The notes beneath the pieces were generated by a model that had not been told where the DNA came from, searched no databases, and was given only the letters and a program-made list of their open reading frames with translations. DNA of 64,000 nt from Spiroplasma apis B31 (GTDB lineage Bacteria > Bacillota_I > Bacilli_A > Mycoplasmatales > Mycoplasmataceae), in the NCBI RefSeq assembly GCF_000500935.1, contig NC_022998.1, positions 496,001-560,000 on the forward strand, read 5' to 3'. The translations under genes were made by a program, and so were the position numbers. Each line of letters starts with the position of its first letter. The first letter of the stretch is position 1. Shown here piece by piece: positions 2 to 15,753 of the stretch.

Positions 2-1958
<1,957 letters not shown>

Positions 1959-1987
1959 CAATATTGCTTTGAAGCATTAGTTATGTT

Positions 1988-2022
1988 AAAAAACAAGGAG
2001 TATTATTAACTTCTTGTTTTTT
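1988..2022 (+). terminator. Rho-independent terminator after the beta-glucosidase gene
   Basis: Arms 1988-2000 and 2010-2022 pair over about 13 positions (AAAAAACAAGGAG against CTTCTTGTTTTTT, one G-T wobble). The run of T at the end forms the U-tail. Confidence 0.75.
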
Positions 2023-2246
2023 ATTGGCTTTATAACTTATATTTAAACTTGTTCTGTGTTCAGTTTCTGATTTTTTTATCTCTTTGATTAATTATCTTTA
2101 AATACACGATTTTAAAAAACTCGATATTTTATATAATTAAAGGGGTAACTCGTTAAATAATACATTTTTTAAGAAGTATTTAAATATTTTTTAAAAAATT
2201 ATAAAAAATTTATATTTTATGTTATTATATTTTTGTCAGGCAACTA

Positions 2247-2329
2247 GTCGTCTATTGCTTAGATATGTCAGAAACTAAGATAAACTTCTTAGTGAAGGGT
2301 TGAGCATCCCTAAACCTGCTCTTTTTTTT
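2247..2329 (+). ncRNA. tracrRNA of the type II-A CRISPR system
   Basis: Bases 2247-2278 are the reverse complement of the CRISPR repeat with one substitution and one missing base. After a four-base AGAT bulge, AAAC at 2282-2285 pairs with the first four bases of the repeat, reproducing the lower stem, bulge and upper stem layout of known Cas9 guide duplexes. A small stem follows (CTTC 2285-2288 with GAAG 2294-2297), a plausible nexus. The 3' end is a terminator: GAGCA 2302-2306 pairs with TGCTC 2317-2321 before eight T. The gene lies on the cas9 strand about 65 bases upstream of the cas9 start, a common place for tracrRNA. The transcription start was not fixed; a TATTAT box near 2223-2228 is a candidate -10. 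Confidence 0.9.
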
Positions 2330-2392
2330 ATTTTCAAAACAAATTTATATAAGTTTGATAAAATATTTTTGAAAGTAAAAAAGGATGAAAAA

Positions 2393-5300
2393 ATGAAAAA
2401 ATATATATTAGGTCTTGATCTTGGTATTTCATCAGTAGGGTGAGCTGTCACAGGTTATGATGATGAGAATGCTATAGAACCTTGATTAGATGATTTTGGT
2501 GTTAGATTATTTGAAGTACCTGAAAATCCAAAAGATAAAACATCTTTAGCTGCTGAAAGAAGAGGATTTCGTAGTTCAAGAAGATTAAAAAGAAGAAAAA
2601 AAGCTAGAATAAAGTTATTGAAAAAAATATTGATAGATTCGGATATTATTAATGAGAATTTATACGAAAAAACTTTCAATTTTTCTATTTCTTCATTAAA
2701 ACCAACAAATAAAATTGTATATGATGAAAAGAAATACTTTAATCCATATGTTATTAGAAAAAAAGGGTTAAAGGAAAAATTAAGTAGTGAAGAACTAACT
2801 ATTGCGCTTGTACACATCGCCAAAAATAGAGGTTTTGAAAACTTATTTGATCCAGAAAAAGGTGAAGATAAATCAGAATTAAAAGATGATGCTGAAATCA
2901 ATGAAAAAGAAGATTATGCAAATTCAATTATAATTGCTAGAAAATTAATAGGTTACGATATAGCCACAAAAACTTGTAAAAAAACAATTGCAGAAGCTTT
3001 CATTGATGAAGAAAGTTCTACAAGGATTGAAAAAAATAAAAATTTGTTAAATGTTCGTAATAAAGATAGTCAATATAGATTTCTTTTTCCAAGAGCGGCA
3101 TATAAATACGAACTAGAACTTATTTTAAATAAACAAGCAGAGTATTATCCTCAACTAAACAATGAAATTATTGATAAAATCATGGATACTATATTAAGAC
3201 AAAGATTCTTTGAGGATGGTTTTGGACCTAAAAATATCTCTCGAGCAGAAAACATTGAATTAATTAAACAAAAATTATCAAACATTAAAGACAAAAATAA
3301 TCATTATATTGCATTAAGAGATTCTTTAAGGGCATATAAATTATATAAACCATTTACTGAATTAGTAGGAAATTGTACATTTTTTCCTAATGAAAAAAGA
3401 TATATTAAGTCAAGTATAATTTTTGATTTATATCAAATGGCAGTTGAAGTCTCTAAGTTTTCTTCTTTTTTAGAGAATAAACAAACAATAAAAGACTTTC
3501 ATAATAAACTATTCAACTTAGCTTTAACCGATGAAAAATTTATTTCAAATAATAAAAAGCAAATTGAAAGTGTTTTAAAAACTGATTTTGGTGTCAAATC
3601 AGAAGATTTAAAAAACTTAAAGGCATTAGATAATGCTAAAAAAACTGATTTATTTGGATTTACCAAAAGATTCATCAAAGTTTTTGGAATGGAAAAACTA
3701 AAAGAATTAAATATTGATAATTTAGACTCAAATATAATAGATGATTTAGGGGATATTTTAAATAAGAATATAACTCCAGAGTTGAGAAAAAGTAACATAA
3801 AAAAATGAGCAAGCGATAATAATGTAACAATTAACGACGAAAATATAAATCAATTACTTTTAACTCCTTCAAAAGTAACTACAACAAGTAATCTTTGTAA
3901 AAAGGCAATGTTAATGGTAATAAAACACTTCCTTGAAGGTGAAATCGCTGGTGTATATCAAGATGAATTAAAAGCAAAAGCAAATGAGTATACAGACTTA
4001 AACATCAAGAAGTTCTTACAACCTATTGTTGATGGAGATTTGGTAAGAAATCCAGTAGTTTTCAGAGCAATCAATGAAGCTAGAAAAGTATTAAAAGCAC
4101 TTTTCAGGAAGTATAATGATTTTGAAAAAATAAATGTGGAAACATCTCGTGAACTTGGTAAGTCTGGTGAAGTCAGAAATGAGTTGAACAAAAAAAATCT
4201 TGATTCAAGAGCTAAAAATGAAGTAATAAAATCTGAACTTGAAAAAATTGGTATTGTAGCAAACACAACCTCAATATTGAAATATAAGCTATGATTAGCT
4301 CAAGATAAAAAATGTTTGTACTCACTTAGAGATATTAAAATAGAACAATTAAACTCACATGAACTTGAAGTCGATCATATATTACCGATTTCGAAGTTTC
4401 CAGATGATTCATTTGATAATAAAGTGCTAGTTTACACAACAGAGAATCAACTTAAAAAAAATCGTACCCCATTAGAATATTTCAATGCTGAAAATCCAGA
4501 TATTATAAATAGCTATAAAAAAAATTGTCTTGATTTATATCGTAAGGGTAATATCACTTGAAATAAGTATGAAAACCTATTAATTAAATCAGTTTTAGAT
4601 ATTGATCAAAATAAATTTTCTTCTAGAAATTTAGTAGATAATTCTTATATTGCTAGGTATTTTGCTAATTGACTTAAAAATAATTTAATTCATAAATATA
4701 AGAAAGAAAATAAAGAATACAAATCTAATGTGTTAATGATTAAAGGGGTTGTCACCTCAAGATTTAGAAGAAAATGGTTACGCTTTTCTCCATGAGGATT
4801 AGATATAAAAGTTCGTGATATAACACCATTTCATCATGCTGTTGATGCGATAGTATTATCACAGTTTAAAAACCAAGGAAGTGTTGATTTTGCTTCTGAC
4901 TTGATAGCTATTGAAAATGAATTTAAAAGTTTTAAATATAAAAACATTTCTTTAGAACAATATCATAATAACGTTAAAGAAATATGTAGTAAGTGACATG
5001 ATAATAGTGGTTATCAGTGACAGTTTCAAATTTCAAAGCCAATTGAGAGAATTGATGATTTTATAAATTCAGATTGCCAAGCAATTAAGATGTTTCCTTT
5101 AGTAAAAAATTTAGATAAATTAATTGATTTAAGAATGCCGATTGAACTATCAGTTAAAGTTGATGTTGATACAGTAAAATTAACTGAAAAAGAACTGAAG
5201 AGAAATTTCAAAAATCTTAACGAGTTATCAATTTTAAATGAAAAAGACTTTAAAAAAGAAATAAAAGTTAAAAGACCTGTATTTGTAAAGGTTAAACATC

Positions 5301-5842
5301 CACAAGAATATATTGAAACTTTAAAGAATGCTAATGTTGCTGGAGATATCCATTATCCTTTTGTTTCCTATAAAGTAAATCATAAAGTTTCTGGATCTGT
5401 TACATCAAGTGAAAAAATGGCTGCAAAAAAATTATTAAAAGATTCCAACAAAGATCAATTTCACATTGATAGACATGGAAACCTCTGAGAAACTAATGTT
5501 TATTATGGAGTTATAATAGACAAAGAAGGTATTAATAAACCTAGATGGATTAAAAAAATAGATATATTTAAAAATAAAAACATTCTAAAACTAAGAGATA
5601 ATGAGCTGATTTTGAGACAAAATGACACAGTATTCTATAAGAATAAAGACGACAATTATGAGTACAAAGTGTTTAAATCTAAAATGGGAGCACAAATTTG
5701 TGCAACAAAAATAAATACTACATATATTTCAACGTTACACAAAAATAAAGAGATATTCGGTACACAAAACTGTTATGACTCATTATCAAATATTTTAAAA
5801 GAAATTAAGATAATAACAATAGATATTTTAGGTAAAGCATAA
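2393..5842 (+). CDS. cas9: CRISPR-associated endonuclease Cas9 (type II-A, compact, 1149 aa)
   Basis: RNA-guided DNA endonuclease that uses the upstream tracrRNA and the downstream crRNAs. All catalytic motifs are visible: RuvC-I in GLDLGISSVGWAV (D9), an arginine-rich bridge helix just after it (about 54-73), RuvC-II in INVETSREL (E583), the HNH core EVDHILPISKFP with catalytic H662 plus the downstream N and K residues of the fold, and RuvC-III in PFHHAVDAIV (H815, D818). Two REC-like helical lobes would occupy about 75-560, and the segment after about 900 should be the PAM-interacting region. The start at 2393 follows AAGGA by seven bases. Several TGA codons are read as Trp. At 1149 residues it is smaller than S. 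pyogenes Cas9 (1368). No frameshift or lost motif was seen, so it is probably active. Confidence 0.97.
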
Positions 5843-5848
5843 TTTGAG
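5842..5848 (+). promoter_or_regulatory. Leader-anchoring sequence ATTTGAG at the cas9 stop / first repeat junction
   Basis: The seven bases directly before the first repeat read ATTTGAG. This is the motif known in streptococcal type II-A loci to position spacer insertion at the leader end. Its first A is the last base of the cas9 TAA stop codon. Any longer leader, including any array promoter close to the first repeat, would therefore have to lie inside the cas9 coding sequence. Confidence 0.7.
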
Positions 5849-8800
5849 GTTTTAGTTATCTGACATATCTAAGGAATAGACGACAATCGCTCTAAATATT
5901 CTCAAACAGATCTAGTTTTAGTTATCTGACATATCTAAGGAATAGACGACAAACAACGAGACGTTACATTTTATGATAAAGTTTTAGTTATCTGACATAT
6001 CTAAGGAATAGACGACCTTTACCAATTAACAATGTATGTGTACCTTGTTTTAGTTATCTGACATATCTAAGGAATAGACGACAGTATCACAAGACGAGTA
6101 CGACACTCTAGAGTTTTAGTTATCTGACATATCTAAGGAATAGACGACCTATTTTTATAAACAAAGTACCTATCATTAGTTTTAGTTATCTGACATATCT
6201 AAGGAATAGACGACATTTTGCCGATAAAGGATTTGCAAGTTGAAGTTTTAGTTATCTGACATATCTAAGGAATAGACGACGAAATGTATTTCAATAGTTA
6301 TATTATAACAGTTTTAGTTATCTGACATATCTAAGGAATAGACGACATAACTTTAAAAAATATTGACAATTATTATGTTTTAGTTATCTGACATATCTAA
6401 GGAATAGACGACAAACTTAAGATATTTGCTATCGTAACTTTTGTTTTAGTTATCTGACATATCTAAGGAATAGACGACGATAATTACAAAAATAATAAAA
6501 TGCGCCTTGTTTTAGTTATCTGACATATCTAAGGAATAGACGACATTATTGTAATACTCGCTTGCTTGTACCAAGTTTTAGTTATCTGACATATCTAAGG
6601 AATAGACGACCATTTTTATAATGAAAACTTGTCCGTTAGTAGTTTTAGTTATCTGACATATCTAAGGAATAGACGACACCTGTTTTAAAAAAACCAATTG
6701 AAGGTGTGTTTTAGTTATCTGACATATCTAAGGAATAGACGACGATTTTGTCATCATAGACATAATCGTTGTAGTTTTAGTTATCTGACATATCTAAGGA
6801 ATAGACGACTGAAAAGGGAAAAGAAATGTCACGTCCTATGTTTTAGTTATCTGACATATCTAAGGAATAGACGACTTTTTCAATAACTAATATTTTTATT
6901 AGTTGGTTTTAGTTATCTGACATATCTAAGGAATAGACGACAAAAAGGTTATTATTAGCATTCTACAAGCCGTTTTAGTTATCTGACATATCTAAGGAAT
7001 AGACGACTTTTTTTTCTCGTGTACGATTTCGTTCAGTTTTAGTTATCTGACATATCTAAGGAATAGACGACTTTTTTTTCTCGTGTACGATTTCGTTCAG
7101 TTTTAGTTATCTGACATATCTAAGGAATAGACGACATATTCTTGATCGACAAGATTGTTAAAAGTGTTTTAGTTATCTGACATATCTAAGGAATAGACGA
7201 CCTCAATAGATGTAAACAATGTTTCACAACCGTTTTAGTTATCTGACATATCTAAGGAATAGACGACAAAATATGAATACAATGCAGACGGAAAAGGTTT
7301 TAGTTATCTGACATATCTAAGGAATAGACGACTTATCTTTAAACTACTAATTTGTAAACTAGGTTTTAGTTATCTGACATATCTAAGGAATAGACGACTT
7401 TTTTTCAATACATAATTACTTGTTCATAAGTTTTAGTTATCTGACATATCTAAGGAATAGACGACGACAACTTCGGAATCATCATTATCAGTAGTGTTTT
7501 AGTTATCTGACATATCTAAGGAATAGACGACATCAGTCCGAGAGACTTAAAACAAAGGAGTGTTTTAGTTATCTGACATATCTAAGGAATAGACGACATT
7601 AAAATTGAAATTAATAATCATATTTGAGTTTTAGTTATCTGACATATCTAAGGAATAGACGACACGATTTCGTTCAATAAAAAATTCAATCTAGTTTTAG
7701 TTATCTGACATATCTAAGGAATAGACGACATCTATTTCATCCGTCACACTTACCACATTGTTTTAGTTATCTGACATATCTAAGGAATAGACGACATGGG
7801 AGATCCTGATTGAAAGGGGAGTTTAGTTTTAGTTATCTGACATATCTAAGGAATAGACGACAATAAAGAAATAGTAAAAATTGAAATTATAGTTTTAGTT
7901 ATCTGACATATCTAAGGAATAGACGACCAAAAACATTGAATTTGAGCATTGGTCTTGGTTTTAGTTATCTGACATATCTAAGGAATAGACGACCAGTATT
8001 TAAAACGCAATATTTTTCCCATAGTTTTAGTTATCTGACATATCTAAGGAATAGACGACAAGTTTTTTTCGTCAACCTTCAAGTCTTTCGTTTTAGTTAT
8101 CTGACATATCTAAGGAATAGACGACTAATAAGTTATATTTCTTAGCTAAAGATGGGTTTTAGTTATCTGACATATCTAAGGAATAGACGACGAACCTATT
8201 AAAAATAGTACAACTAATAGAGTTTTAGTTATCTGACATATCTAAGGAATAGACGACTCAATAGTTAGTTTCTCAACGAACTCTTTTGTTTTAGTTATCT
8301 GACATATCTAAGGAATAGACGACTTTTTCATTAACTAATATTTTTATTGGTTGGTTTTAGTTATCTGACATATCTAAGGAATAGACGACTCGTAAATTGT
8401 TCGTTATAAGTCTTCATTTGTTTTAGTTATCTGACATATCTAAGGAATAGACGACGATTTTATGTACAACGAAATGGAAATTAGTGTTTTAGTTATCTGA
8501 CATATCTAAGGAATAGACGACTCAACAAAAGTCTTATCATATGGCATTCAAGTTTTAGTTATCTGACATATCTAAGGAATAGACGACCAAAACACAGACC
8601 CTACGATCAAGTACAAAGTTTTAGTTATCTGACATATCTAAGGAATAGACGACGTCATTGAAAAACTTTTATTAGAGGTAATTGTTTTAGTTATCTGACA
8701 TATCTAAGGAATAGACGACGGTTCATAGCTTTTGAACAACCACAACTTTGTTTTAGTTATCTGACATATCTAAGGAATAGACGACACTTGCTGAAGGCTT

Positions 8801-9501
8801 TGACCAAGGTACGGGGTTTTAGTTATCTGACATATCTAAGGAATAGACGACGTATTGACATACATATTTTTTACCTATAAGGTTTTAGTTATCTGACATA
8901 TCTAAGGAATAGACGACTTTTTTTCATTTTAAAACCTTTCCATTTCTGTTTTAGTTATCTGACATATCTAAGGAATAGACGACTTTTTCATTAACTAATA
9001 TTTTTATTGGTCAGTTTTAGTTATCTGACATATCTAAGGAATAGACGACACATTTTCGTTCAATAAAAAATCCAATCTAGTTTTAGTTATCTGACATATC
9101 TAAGGAATAGACGACAGTGAAAACAAAGTATCCGCATCTATTTGAGTTTTAGTTATCTGACATATCTAAGGAATAGACGACGGACCAATATATACCTATT
9201 TCCCCGACAACGTTTTAGTTATCTGACATATCTAAGGAATAGACGACGCAATAAGCATTTTTACATCATGTTAGGGGTTGTTTTAGTTATCTGACATATC
9301 TAAGGAATAGACGACAACAAGATCAAGTATCTTATACAACCTATAGTTTTAGTTATCTGACATATCTAAGGAATAGACGACTTAGATTTAAATAATTACG
9401 AAACAAATAATGTTTTAGTTATCTGACATATCTAAGGAATAGACGACAAGATTGAGAGTAACAAGGAGTTGGAGATTGTTTTAGTTATCTGACATATCTA
9501 A
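5849..9501 (+). CRISPR. CRISPR array, 55 intact repeats plus one truncated repeat, 55 spacers
   Basis: The 36-base repeat starts GTTTTAGTTATCTGACATAT and ends GGAATAGACGAC; the 55 full copies looked identical. Spacers are 30 bases, except 31 (spacers 12 and 24), 28 (18 and 19), 29 (22) and 32 (52). The last repeat (9478-9501) keeps only its first 24 bases, which marks the old, leader-distal end. Orientation follows from the tracrRNA: crRNAs read spacer then GTTTTAG on the plus strand, the same way as cas9. Spacers 18 and 19 are identical. Spacers 16, 38 and 48 are near-identical, as are 28 and 49. Spacers 18 and 28 share 13 bases end to start. No spacer was seen to match the rest of the window, although this was not searched exhaustively. 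Confidence 0.99.
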
Positions 9502-9675
9502 TACATAAGGACTAAAAAACCCTACAAAATTACCTTTAAAATTTTACTAATTTTGTTAGGTTATTTGGAAATATAGTTTGAAAACTAACATTTTCAAACT
9601 ATAGTGGTATGGTCTTTTACTTTTTTATTACATAAAATGAACTTATATTTATGTATATAGGAAAGGAATAACGTT
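9502..9675 (+). promoter_or_regulatory. Array trailer with two strong inverted repeats before cas1
   Basis: This 174-base gap holds two stem-loops. Arms 9518-9530 and 9550-9562 pair with two mismatches. Arms 9572-9584 and 9591-9603 form a perfect 13-bp stem with loop CTAACA. Neither is followed at once by a T run, although CTTTTACTTTTTT follows ten bases after the second. They could end array transcripts or separate the array from cas1. A purine-rich GAAAGGA at 9661-9667 is the ribosome binding site of cas1. A promoter for cas1-cas2-csn2 probably lies between about 9604 and 9660, but no clear -35/-10 pair could be fixed. Confidence 0.5.
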
Positions 9676-10617
9676 TTGTCTTGGAAAACAATAATTATAA
9701 ATAAGTATGATAAATTATCGCTTAAAAATAATTTATTAAAAATAGAAAATACTAAACAGGAATCTGACAAATCATTAACATTCTCATTAAGTGATATTAA
9801 CTGTGTAATATTAGAAAATAATTACACATTAATTTCTACACAACTTATTTCTAAATTATTAGATAATAATGTGTTTCTAGTTGTTTGTAATGATAGTTAT
9901 GAACCTAACGGAATTATGCTCTCATATCACAATCATTGAAAACCATTAGCTATTATAGAAAAGCAAATAAGCATTAATTCAGAATATAAAAAAATAATAT
10001 GAAAACAAATAATTGAAAAAAAGATCGAAAATTCTTTGAATGTTATGGTCATGATTGGTTGTAGTGATAGATCAATCGAAATGGTATCGAACTTTCAAAA
10101 AACAGTCAAATTAAACGATACAACCAATAGAGAAGGACTTGCTGCTAAAGTCTTTTTTAGAGAGTTATATGGAAGTAATTTTATTAGATTTAGTGATGAT
10201 ATCATAAACAAAACTTTAAATTACGGCTACACAATTTTAGCTTCTGCAATATCTAGAACCTTGGTTAAATACGGATTACTATGTTTTCTAGGTATCTTTC
10301 ATATTGGTAAAACTAATAATTGAAACTTATCTTATGATTTATTGGAACCGTTTAGACCACTTGTTGATTTATGAGTAATTAAAAATCTTGATGGTTTAGA
10401 AGGGGAGAACATTAGTTATAATAAAAGACTAGAATTAATCAACTTACTTAATCAATTTGTATCAGTTGATGGTAAGTTTCAAACTATTACAAATGCAATT
10501 GATATAATGGTTAGAAGTTATGTAACAGTTTTAAAAACAACAAGTTCTCTAAAACTTAAGCTTCCTACAATAATATATTATGAAGAAAAAGTAGATGACA
10601 TCTATGAGTATGAGTAG
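9676..10617 (+). CDS. cas1: CRISPR-associated integrase Cas1 (type II-A)
   Basis: Catalytic subunit of the Cas1-Cas2 complex that inserts new spacers at the leader end. The 313-residue protein follows the type II-A pattern closely: a SWKTIIINKYDKLSLKNN start like that of streptococcal Cas1, then NREGLAAKVFF (metal ligand E153), FHIG (H209) and LLEPFRPLVD (E224), the three expected active-site residues. TGA is read as Trp at several conserved places, for example before KPLAI. The start is a TTG at 9676, eight bases after GAAAGGA; no ATG lies near the conserved N-terminus. It overlaps cas2 at its 3' end, so cas1, cas2 and csn2 form one transcription unit. Confidence 0.96.
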
Positions 10618-10936
10618 GTTTCGACAAATGAGATTATTTGTGTTTTATGATTTACCTAATACAACTAAAGGTGAAAATAAAGAATACACTAAGTTTAGAA
10701 GAATATTAATTCAAAATGGTTTCTATATGATTCAATTTTCTATATATGTAAAGTTATGTATAAATTATGATCAAATGTTAATCTATCAAAAAAAGATTGA
10801 AAACTTTAAGCCTAAAAAAGGAGACGTTAGAATGATAGGTATAACAGAAAAACAATATAAAGATATGAAAATTTTAGTGGGTAGCAAGACTTTTCAAGAA
10901 GAAAATCAAAACATTGATTTTATATTGGAATTATAG
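10595..10936 (+). CDS. cas2: CRISPR-associated protein Cas2
   Basis: Structural partner of Cas1 in the adaptation complex, with a ferredoxin-like fold. The conserved first strand reads MRLFVFYDLPNTTKGE with the metal-site aspartate in YDLPN (D19 from the first ATG), followed by the typical FRRILIQNGFYMIQFSIYVK and PKKGDVRMIGITEKQY segments. Three in-frame ATGs (10595, 10604, 10610) are possible starts. The one at 10610 gives MSRFRQMRLFVFYD, which aligns best with streptococcal Cas2, so the true protein may be 108 rather than 113 residues. It overlaps the end of cas1 and shares its last base with the csn2 start. Confidence 0.94.
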   Translation: MTSMSMSRFRQMRLFVFYDLPNTTKGENKEYTKFRRILIQNGFYMIQFSIYVKLCINYDQMLIYQKKIENFKPKKGDVRMIGITEKQYKDMKILVGSKTFQEENQNIDFILEL

Positions 10937-12108
10937 TGGAAACTAACTTAGTACTTAATAGTAACTTTTTTGGAAAAACCACAATAAATTTTCATAATAA
11001 TATAGCATATTTATATGGTACTAATAACTCTAAAAAAAGCCTATTATTACATGAAATCTATGAAGGTCTTAAAGGTAAAGAAATATACAAACTTTCATTT
11101 AATTCCTCAAGCTCGTGTGTTGCTAGATATCAATGTGTTTTTTTAAAAGAACTATTTGATTTACAAAATGAATTAAAACTAACAAAATCTAATCTTTTAC
11201 GTAATTGTATTTTGAAGAAAATCAATAGCCACATAATAATGCAACAAGATAATGAGAATTTTCAAAACCGACTAAATACTTTTTACAATGATTTAGAAGA
11301 GGTTATTAATTCATTAGAGTTCAAAGAAATGTTTGATTTAGATGAAAAATTATCTGTTAAGTTCAATATTGATACCAAAGCAATAGATAGCCTTATTGAT
11401 AAATTATTAAAAGTTTATTTATATAAAGAAGATGAATCTAAAGAAGTTGATGAGAAATCATATAGCAGATTTACTATAAGAATGTTGATATTAGAGATCT
11501 TGTTTTTAGAGATTGATTTCAATGATAAAGAACGACCAATATTTTTATTATTAGATCTTCCCGATGCTTGTGCAGATGATAATAATATTTTAAAACTTAG
11601 CGCAACTATATTAGAATGGATTGGTAAATACAATATTAATGTTATTATTACCGTTAACAGTTCTTTTACCTTAAAATTATTCAACCCTGATTTACGATCA
11701 ATAAACTTTATATCTAACTCAAAGATTATCAATTTAAAAAAGTTAAAAAGTATTTTCAAAAACATAGCAGTTTGCTATTCATTTATTGAATCTAAAAGCA
11801 CAGATTTAATAATATACAAACAACAAATTACTAGTTTGATTAATAATGATGACTTACATTTTGAATATAGTTACTACAAGAAGAGAATTGAACATTACTT
11901 ATATATGACTCATATCTTTAGAAAAATTGTTGTAATTGAAAGTAAAGATGTAAGTAACTGAAATGTTGATCACAAAGCGTTAACTTTAAATATTAACTAC
12001 AAAGATATTGTTTTCCTTTTTGTTTTATCTTTTGAGTTGGAACTCTCAAAAAAGATTGATTGAAATATAGAAAATATTAAATTGAAAGCATTGATAGAAA
12101 ACTACTAA
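10936..12108 (+). CDS. csn2: Long Csn2-like adaptation protein (type II-A)
   Basis: Csn2 is a DNA-end-binding ring protein needed for spacer acquisition in type II-A systems; its position after cas2 identifies this gene. The GTG start shares its G with the cas2 TAG stop. The 390-residue protein has a P-loop-like segment LYGTNNSKKSLLL (residues 26-38; a degenerate Walker A, with K at both 33 and 34) and a hydrophobic strand ending in an acidic residue, FLLLDLPD (D207), like an ABC-type Walker B. It is longer than both the short (about 220) and long (about 350) Csn2 forms I know, and overall similarity is weak, so it may be a separate subfamily. The C-terminal 60 residues are hydrophobic and rich in Ile, Leu and Lys. 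Confidence 0.75.
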
Positions 12109-12930: not shown

Positions 12931-15753
12931 ATGGATGAATTATTAAATAATAAAGATAAAATTTTCTCAGTTATTGATTTTTTTAGTTTTAATTTATTTG
13001 CAAGTGATATAAAGTATCCTATGAAGAAAATATTTACATTTGATGAGTATAAAAAAGCAATTATAAATTTCAAAGATAATAAAAATAAGGAAAATGCTAT
13101 TGATGAGATAACAAAAAACACTGATAAACCCTATCAAAAAGATGTTAAAATTTTTTTGAATTTTAATTGCATTTATTACTATGGTAGTAGAGGCTCTGGT
13201 AAAACTATGTTCACAAAAAACTCAGCCAATCATAAAGATATTGAAGCATATTATTTAAAAGATCTTAGTTATGAAAAAATTAAAGACTTGGAAGAAAACA
13301 TAAATACCAATAATTTAAAATATGTAATTTTTGATGGGATAAATGAATTTGATTTTTCTCTTAAACGCATTTTTGAAAAAATCATAATAAATCTTTTAGC
13401 TATTAATATCAAAGTTATAATTACTGGTGTTTGCGAAAAGGAAATAAAAAAACTTGATTTAAATATAGGAACAATTGAATTTAAAAATTCTTTGGAAAGT
13501 AACTATATGTATAGAGTGTCTACTCTTATAAGTCCAAGTAATTATGAGAAATATTATAAGATAATTCAAACTATTTCTTTTAATTTACTGTCTTTAAGAG
13601 AAATTAATTACTTTATCCATTCATTAATTATATTATCTAATAAAGGATTTGTAATCAAAAAAAATACTGATCACTTCATATTTATATGAAGAAATATTCT
13701 GGAGCATTTTTTTGAGTTTTACTTCGAAGGAGAGAAATGTGTAGACTGAAAAAGTTATTGAACTTTTTTAAAAAATAATATTAAAACTTTTTACTATGGT
13801 ATTGATGAGAAATCAGAATTCTTTAAAAAAAATAAAAGTGAAATAATTTTTTTTAACTCTCGAAGTATAGTGGCAAAAGAAAAAGAAAAGTTTGTTTTAA
13901 AAGATAGAATGTTATACCTACCATTGTTACTAACGCATATGAGAAAATGTAAGGATGATAAAGAATATAGGGATGACGTAGAATTGAAGGAATGATATAC
14001 AGCTTTTGTTCTGTTGTTAAAATCTGAAAAAATGGAAGAAGTTAACATAGAATTTATTATAAATAAGGACGATGATATCTTACTAGTAAAAAGAATTAAT
14101 AAAAGTATTTTGAATAAACTTATGCTTCTTTTTTCTTTTAAGGAAAAAAGGAAAAAACTAGTACTCAATAAGAATCATGAATATAAAATATCTTTTTTTT
14201 ATTTTTTAATATCAAACTTCAACGTTCAAGATTTAAATGAATGTATTGAGTTGGAAAGGGAAGATTATGAAAAATGTATCACATTTTTAATAGATAATAT
14301 AAATATTATGAAGTTTGAAAATATTCTATGTAATTTTATTGATTTGACAGATTTTAATGACAGAAATATGGAAATTTTTTATATAAGTTATTTTACAAAT
14401 CGTATATTAAATTTATCTGAAAATGATGCAATCATATTTTATAAAAGATTATTTAACTCATTTTCTTGTTATAAAACCTTTGTTAAATGGGCCAATATTT
14501 TTCTAAGAATTAAGATATTTCAAAAAGCTAACAGTCATGTAAATATTTTAAAATATTACTTAAAAAAAACATTTTGTAAATATAAAAAAACATTGACATA
14601 TAAATATGTCTTTTATAATTACTATTTTTTGCACTTAGATTTAATAAATACACCTGTAAATAACAACTTTGGAAACATTCATGATAAAAAATATTTAATC
14701 AATATAAATAATAGCCTAATTCAAAATGCGTATATATTTTTATGTTATTTTTTCAAACAAACTGAATACCATACATGTGAAGAGATAAAAGAAATTATGA
14801 ATTTAATAAATGATAAATTTTCATTTCCAAGAAATGTACAAATTAATTCTTATTTTAAACTCCATTACACAACATCTACAAAAATATATAATAGTTTTGA
14901 TTGAAAAGTTATTGAATTAATAGATTTTATTATTTTAAAGTATTTTAAAAAGAAAAAATGCGACGCAAAAAAGAATAGAATATATTATTCTGATATATAT
15001 TTAGAAAATAACTTAAAAATTGAATGACCATTGATAAACAATAATTTTTTTATATGCTCCAATTTAATTTTTTGCGATAATAAAATTTCTGATGAAAAAA
15101 TGTGAAATATAAAATATTATCCTTTGGATAAAGAAAAATTTAGAAAGATTACGAATAATTTCATTAAATTTTTATTAGAAAATAAATTTTACGCCTTTAA
15201 AAATAAGGTTAGGATAGAGACGGGTTTTAAAATATATTACATTTTTAAAGAGATAAAGTTCGAAAAGGAGTTTTATCATCAAAATATCTCTGATGTTGTA
15301 ACAAATAATTGTTACATAGATACTTTTGAAGTATCAGAATTTTCAAAGGAACAGTTCATATTCCAAATTCAGTTGTATTCAGAAACAATATTCTCTTCGG
15401 AACTTTTAAATCATAAAGATATTTGTATTAATTATAATGGTGAATTAGAAACTTTTTTTCCATCAAATCACTTGACCAAAAAAAGAATCAATTGATCGAC
15501 AAAAGAGGGGACTGTTTTTTTCGATGATGATTCACAAACTTGATTCAAAATACCTAATAATGATAGAAAAAAGAATTTTTTTAAATATTATGTTTGTTAT
15601 TGCGAAAGTTGAAATACTGGTAATATAATAAGAAGATGAATAATATTAAAATATAATAAAAAAGAAGTATTTTTTCAAGAAGTTTTTGATACAAGTGAAC
15701 TTGGGATGGAAGTGTTTAAATTAAAGGAAAACAAATGATTGTCTTTAAAATAA
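12931..15753 (+). CDS. Large P-loop ATPase, NACHT/STAND-like (940 aa), putative defence protein
   Basis: The 940-residue protein has a Walker A motif YYGSRGSGKT (G85 to T92) and a Walker B strand YVIFDGINEFD (131-141). The DG-x-x-E form of Walker B, followed by a second buried strand IKVIITGV, resembles NACHT-type STAND ATPases (usual form DGLDE, then LITSR). The roughly 650 residues after the ATPase part are helical, rich in Phe, Tyr, Lys and Asn, and unrecognised; they could be a sensor region. The first 80 residues show no known effector motif, transmembrane segment or signal peptide. The gene stands alone between the CRISPR locus and an IS relic. Anti-phage function is inferred from fold type and neighbourhood only; a KAP- or AAA-type ATPase is an alternative. 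Confidence 0.7.

What the first reader, a model, noticed from the sequence alone, without database searches (positions are those of the whole stretch)
5837..5915. CRISPR array fused to the end of cas9: ATTTGAG leader motif overlaps the cas9 stop codon
The first repeat begins six bases after the cas9 TAA, and the seven bases before it are ATTTGAG, the leader-anchoring motif established for streptococcal type II-A adaptation. The usual order is cas9-cas1-cas2-csn2-array; here the array sits between cas9 and cas1. The leader recognised by Cas1-Cas2 must lie in the 3' end of the cas9 coding sequence, so it would be under double constraint. There is also no room for a separate array promoter close to the first repeat. 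Array transcription could come from cas9 read-through, which would couple nuclease and guide supply. The truncated repeat at 9478 confirms that the leader end is at cas9.
Basis: partly seen in the sequence, partly recalled or inferred. Interest (0 to 1): 0.85.

Follow-up and report, generated by a model that had tools for sequence, protein, structure and literature searches.

The report
CRISPR array abutting the cas9 gene
In the honeybee bacterium Spiroplasma apis the CRISPR memory array begins six bases after the stop codon of its cas9 gene, so the spot where new memories are inserted sits at the very end of the gene; this is real and tight, but it is the extreme of a layout seen in several relatives rather than a new kind of system.

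Summary
Stop codon TAA at 5840-5842, ATTTGAG at 5842-5848, first of 55 identical 36-nt repeats at 5849, truncated 56th at 9478, then cas1-cas2-csn2. The genome is 1,160,554 bp, the published size of Spiroplasma apis B31. ATTTGAG is the general group 1 type II-A leader end (87 of 167 loci), so leader polarity is well supported. The nearest relative (58% Cas9 identity) has the same order with a 9-nt gap; 9 of 51 surveyed Mollicutes loci carry a same-strand array within about 110 nt behind cas9. Double constraint on the cas9 end is not seen: synonymous codon identity there is lower (5/15) than elsewhere (385/644), and upstream identity between the two fused loci is at chance. The published minimal leader overlaps little more than the stop codon. 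'No room for a promoter' is not sound: 6 of 9 leaders in this Cas9 group have an exact TATAAT 7-15 nt before the first repeat; here CATAAT spans the stop codon. Read-through from cas9 stays plausible: no terminator hairpin lies at this junction, unlike two relatives. A long Csn2 downstream makes the system II-A, against its published II-C label.

The parts
2247..2278 (+). tracrRNA anti-repeat, upstream of cas9; the tracrRNA probably runs to the T-run terminator near 2329
   Evidence: local alignment to the reverse-complemented repeat; predicted repeat:tracrRNA duplex -48 kcal/mol
2393..5842 (+). cas9, 1149 aa in code 4 (TGA=Trp), TAA stop at 5840-5842
   Evidence: TIGR01865 E=1.6e-154; translation
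5838..5843 (+). CATAAT, candidate -10 box straddling the last cas9 codon and the stop codon (inferred)
   Evidence: one mismatch to TATAAT; relatives of this Cas9 group have exact TATAAT at -7 to -15 from the first repeat
5842..5848 (+). ATTTGAG leader-end motif; its first base is the last base of the cas9 stop codon
   Evidence: sequence; group 1 type II-A leader end (PMC5382924)
5849..5884 (+). first CRISPR repeat; predicted integration point at 5848/5849
5849..9501 (+). CRISPR array: 55 perfect 36-nt repeats, 55 spacers (mostly 30 nt), truncated terminal repeat at 9478-9501
9512..9568 (+). hairpin just after the array, possible end of the pre-crRNA (inferred)
   Evidence: fold -13 kcal/mol, z -2.0
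9572..9603 (+). second, perfect 13-bp hairpin between array and cas1; overlaps a promoter-like TTGAAA-16-TATAGT (9578-9605)
   Evidence: fold -12 kcal/mol, z -4.2; scan
9676..10617 (+). cas1 (type II)
   Evidence: TIGR03639 E=7.5e-80
10595..10936 (+). cas2
   Evidence: TIGR01573 E=2.1e-19; Cas2_II PADLOC
10936..12108 (+). csn2, long form, 390 aa
   Evidence: PADLOC Csn2 PDLC01597 E=1.2e-115 over the full profile; predicted fold, best PDB match 3zth (Stu0660 of S. thermophilus), model pLDDT 69

Best explanation
This is an ordinary type II-A (long-Csn2) CRISPR-Cas9 locus whose array lies between cas9 and cas1 and whose leader has shrunk to about the minimal adaptation signal. Cas1-Cas2-Csn2 would recognise ATTTGAG plus the first repeat and insert new spacers at 5848/5849, six bases past the cas9 stop codon, so acquisition leaves cas9 intact. 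The array is most likely transcribed at least partly by read-through from cas9, since nothing separates them, possibly helped by a start whose -10 box (CATAAT) overlaps the stop codon. Any joint transcript would be cut within the first repeat by RNase III on the tracrRNA duplex, which would set the 3' end of cas9 mRNA. Shown: anatomy, motif, polarity, gene set, absence of a terminator hairpin. Inferred: integration point, read-through, weak promoter, RNase III trimming.
For: Motif and junction. Group 1 leader end and about 10-nt requirement (PMC5382924). Degenerate terminal repeats on the far side here and in relatives. Intact cas1, cas2 and csn2 and 55 perfect repeats suggest a working system. 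Nearest relative G003 has the same order with a 9-nt gap. No terminator at the window or G003 junctions, against strong hairpins in G028 (-18.5 kcal/mol, z -8.1) and G311 (-18.0, z -6.3). TATAAT within 25 nt of the first repeat in 6 of 9 group leaders, 0.56 expected, 0 of 300 shuffles. Repeat:tracrRNA duplex -48 kcal/mol.
Against: No transcript data. CATAAT is a one-mismatch match that AT-rich DNA gives often (about 3.7 of 9 leaders by chance), has no -35 box, and the scan found no plus-strand promoter ending before the first repeat. G003 has no -10 match and its leader end is TTTTAAG, so the motif is not strictly kept even in the sister locus. No second S. apis strain was available to show acquisition at the cas9 end.
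Confidence: 0.6

Rival explanations
1. The array has its own dedicated promoter whose -10 box straddles the cas9 stop codon and whose start lies in or next to the first repeat, as in related leaders; cas9 and array are controlled separately.
For: TATAAT at -7 to -15 in 6 of 9 leaders of this Cas9 group, 0 of 300 shuffles reach it; in G028 a terminator hairpin and TATAAT are packed into the 34 nt between cas9 and array; CATAAT sits at -11 here.
Against: One mismatch, no -35 box, absent in G003; no terminator here to stop cas9 transcripts.
Confidence: 0.35
2. One reading: an extended leader inside the cas9 3' coding sequence is read by Cas1-Cas2, so that DNA is under double constraint, and read-through is the sole source of guides.
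For: The only DNA upstream of the 6-nt gap is cas9 coding sequence; no terminator.
Against: Synonymous codon identity with G003 is 5/15 in the last 34 codons against 385/644 elsewhere (Fisher p 0.06, lower not higher); identity upstream of -10 near chance; about 10 nt of leader is enough in S. thermophilus (PMC5382924).
Confidence: 0.1
3. The position is a harmless result of genome compaction in a system that no longer acquires spacers.
For: Csn2 here and in G003 has a degenerate Walker A motif (GTNNSKKS, GPNDSKKS) while G311, G185 and G196 keep GxxxxGKT; spacers are largely without known targets.
Against: cas1, cas2 and csn2 are open, repeats are identical, ATTTGAG is intact, spacer 24 matches other Spiroplasma genomes exactly. 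Csn2 of studied II-A systems is thought not to need ATPase activity (own knowledge).
Confidence: 0.15
4. Assembly artefact: short-read assembly of a 3.7-kb repeat array joined the wrong repeat to cas9.
For: The genome was built from Illumina reads, 101-bp pairs and a 3.8-kb mate-pair library (PMC3886961).
Against: The junction bears the exact leader motif, and G003 shows the same order with a 9-nt gap.
Confidence: 0.03

Closest known systems
Type II-A CRISPR-Cas, group 1 leader (ATTTGAG), long-Csn2 branch, e.g. Streptococcus thermophilus CRISPR1
   Same: ATTTGAG|GTTTTA junction, 36-nt repeats, 30-nt spacers, Cas9-Cas1-Cas2-Csn2 gene set, long Csn2 with best fold match Stu0660
   Different: array lies between cas9 and cas1, with no intergenic leader beyond 6 nt; tracrRNA upstream of cas9
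Locus of G003 (Spiroplasma, 1,560,007 bp; probably S. clarkii, name not verified)
   Same: order cas9-array-cas1-cas2-csn2, repeat differs at one base, array 9 nt after the stop codon
   Different: leader end GATTTTAAG, no -10 match, Cas9 58% identical
Locus of Spiroplasma sp. JKS002669 (G311, L119)
   Same: array between cas9 and cas1, long Csn2, ATTTTGAG leader end
   Different: 108-nt intergenic leader with a strong hairpin and TAAAAT at -15
Loci of S. syrphidicola-like relatives (G193, G196, G185)
   Same: related Cas9 and long Csn2; leader end ATTTGAG in G193 and G196
   Different: cas1-cas2-csn2 directly follow cas9 and, in G193 and G196, the array comes after csn2 with TATAAT at -15; no array was detected in the G185 stretch

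Membership tests
Type II-A CRISPR-Cas | Cas9 effector with HNH and RuvC | tested here: met
   TIGR01865 E=1.6e-154; HNH_4 and RuvC_III in Pfam
Type II-A CRISPR-Cas | cas1 and cas2 of type II | tested here: met
   TIGR03639 and TIGR01573; Cas1_II and Cas2_II
Type II-A CRISPR-Cas | csn2 present | tested here: met
   PADLOC Csn2 E=1.2e-115; best structural match Stu0660 (moderate model); no Pfam or NCBIfam hit
Type II-A CRISPR-Cas | tracrRNA with anti-repeat | tested here: met
   2247-2278
Group 1 type II-A leader | ATTTGAG directly before GTTT of the first repeat | tested here: met
   5842-5848
Group 1 type II-A leader | leader directs spacer integration | not testable with these tools
   needs an acquisition assay or strain comparison
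Type II-C CRISPR-Cas (published label for S. apis) | no csn2 and no cas4 | tested here: not met
   csn2 found at 10936-12108 against PMC6882279
Canonical II-A operon order | cas9-cas1-cas2-csn2-array | tested here: not met
   array between cas9 and cas1

The most novel reading that the evidence does not exclude
The junction is a control point: nuclease and guides leave one transcript, the first repeat acts as the 3' UTR of cas9 mRNA, and tracrRNA plus RNase III cut it there. Guide maturation would then set cas9 mRNA ends and stability, with the newest spacer always next to cas9.
Probability: 0.2. Interest if true: 0.6.

Novelty: new variant of a known kind. Interest (0 to 1): 0.36.

Why it matters
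It is a natural test of how small a CRISPR leader can be. Adaptation signal, cas9 stop codon and perhaps a -10 box are packed into about 12 bp, while relatives range from 9 to 108 nt with or without terminators. If both expression and acquisition work here, the minimal leader found in S. thermophilus by mutation also exists in nature, and guide supply may be tied to cas9 transcription. It also corrects the published subtype of the S. apis system.

Tried and rejected
Spacer searches: the array against phage and plasmid collections gave nothing above chance, and 49 spacers against 60 family genomes gave only short AT-rich matches; only spacer 24 has perfect matches. Rfam found no known RNA in 1900-9800. 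A single-protein scan of genome contigs found no relatives; the alignment scan gave 18 named loci. First guess that the genome is S. litorale was rejected: that chromosome is 1,225,519 bp. Promoter scan of the junction found no plus-strand site above chance upstream of the first repeat. Double-constraint test was negative. A tested alternative, a leader at the cas1 end, was rejected because the terminal repeat there is truncated here and degenerate in relatives.

Full report
What is there. The window is coding-table-4 DNA at 496001-560000 of a 1,160,554-bp chromosome, which is the published size of Spiroplasma apis B31 (PMC3886961). A published survey reports that spacer 24 of S. apis B31 has a perfect match in Spiroplasma floricola (PMC6882279); spacer 24 counted from the cas9 end here has perfect matches in two other Spiroplasma genomes, which agrees. 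cas9 runs from 2393 to 5842 (1149 aa; TIGR01865). Its TAA is at 5840-5842, ATTTGAG at 5842-5848, and the first 36-nt repeat at 5849. There are 55 identical repeats and a 24-nt partial copy at 9478. cas1, cas2 and a 390-aa csn2 follow. A tracrRNA anti-repeat lies upstream of cas9 at 2247-2278.

Is it more than chance. ATTTGAG occurs 18 times on both strands of 64 kb, 1.4e-4 per position, so its presence exactly at the junction is meaningful. PMC5382924 reports ATTTGAG as the leader end of 87 of 167 type II-A loci in 42 genera and, citing Wei et al. 2015, that the last 10 nt of leader plus the first repeat suffice for adaptation in S. thermophilus. The degenerate last repeat on the far side is seen here and in relatives.

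How unusual. In the same order of bacteria, 82 of 320 genomes have a Cas9 match. In 51 loci with a readable array, most have cas9-cas1-cas2(-csn2)-array. Nine have a same-strand array within about 110 nt behind cas9: this window (6 nt), G003 (9), G157 (27), G090 (30), G026 (32), G028 (34), G034 (41), G036 (107) and G311 (108). These lie in several families, so the layout has probably arisen more than once (inference). G003, the nearest relative with 58% Cas9 identity, has the same order and a repeat that differs at one base. G311 is Spiroplasma sp. JKS002669 and G026 is Candidatus Hepatoplasma vulgare. G090, with 30 nt, also ends in ATTTGAG. Non-mollicute relatives mostly carry the array after cas2.

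Double constraint. If Cas1-Cas2 read a long leader inside cas9, synonymous sites there should be conserved. Between this window and G003, codons for the same amino acid are identical in 385 of 644 cases over the rest of the gene but in only 5 of 15 in the last 34 codons (Fisher p 0.06, in the opposite direction). Anchored at the repeat, the two sequences agree at 5 of 7 positions next to the repeat, 2 of 10 at -11 to -20, and 17 of 40 at -21 to -60, against about a third by chance. The test is weak because only one fused relative is known and it is distant, but it gives no support. The 10 nt needed for adaptation (5839-5848) overlap one wobble base and the stop codon.

Promoter or read-through. 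Among nine leaders of this Cas9 group, six have an exact TATAAT within 25 nt of the first repeat (0.56 expected; 0 of 300 shuffles), at -7 to -15. So array promoters in this group appear to abut the first repeat, and six bases of gap do not exclude one. Here the best candidate is CATAAT at 5838-5843, formed by GCA|TAA|T; it has one mismatch, no -35 box, and no counterpart in G003, so it is not significant by itself. On the other side, G028 and G311 have strong hairpins between cas9 and array (-18.5 and -18.0 kcal/mol, z -8.1 and -6.3), while this junction has none (-5.4, z -0.8). Read-through from cas9 is therefore expected here (inference). A joint transcript would contain a repeat that pairs with tracrRNA (-48 kcal/mol) and should be cut by RNase III. 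PMC12216489 describes such cleavage lowering expression from transcripts that carry repeats.

Subtype. PMC6882279 assigned S. apis B31, S. syrphidicola, S. clarkii and S. eriocheiris to type II-C for lack of csn2. The gene at 10936-12108 matches PADLOC Csn2 at E=1.2e-115, and its predicted fold (pLDDT 69) is closest to Stu0660 of S. thermophilus, which I know as a long-form Csn2. Homologues lie after cas2 in G003, G311, G185, G193 (disrupted) and G196. The system is II-A. A similar correction was published for Hepatoplasmataceae (PMC10928387).

Verdict. A real and extreme case of a recurrent layout in a known system, with a testable question about transcription and leader size. The survey PMC6882279 covers this locus, but its text has no occurrence of 'leader' or 'promoter', so the fusion itself seems not to have been discussed there.

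Noticed in passing
10936-12108: Long-form csn2 (390 aa) that the published survey reported as absent in S. apis; its Walker A motif is degenerate (GTNNSKKS) as in G003, while G311, G185 and G196 keep GxxxxGKT.
   Followed up: partly
6876-6905, 8324-8353 and 8984-9013 (spacers 16, 38, 48); 7664-7693 and 9050-9079 (spacers 28, 49); 7008-7035 and 7072-7099 (spacers 18, 19): Spacers that are near-identical variants of one another, and one exact duplicate of a spacer-repeat unit: repeated capture from related elements, or array duplication.
   Followed up: no
7399-7429 (spacer 24); L152, L153, L154, L155: Perfect matches in two other Spiroplasma genomes (and two copies with 2-3 mismatches), all within a large open frame and all followed by GTTAA, a candidate PAM.
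   Followed up: partly
genome position C1:926386-926413 (L137, outside the window): A solitary repeat-like sequence (93% over 28 nt) in a stretch with no open frame above about 100 aa: relic, second anti-repeat, or a mobile-element repeat mimic.
   Followed up: partly
12931-15753: A 940-aa protein downstream of csn2 with only a weak AAA-domain match and no PADLOC hit.
   Followed up: no
L094, L099, L102, L105, L108, L111, L113: In several other Mollicutes the array behind cas9 appears to point the other way, with its trailer end near the cas9 stop codon.
   Followed up: no
L055 (G028): An array of more than 185 repeats starts 34 nt after cas9, with a terminator-like hairpin and TATAAT packed into that gap.
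   Followed up: partly
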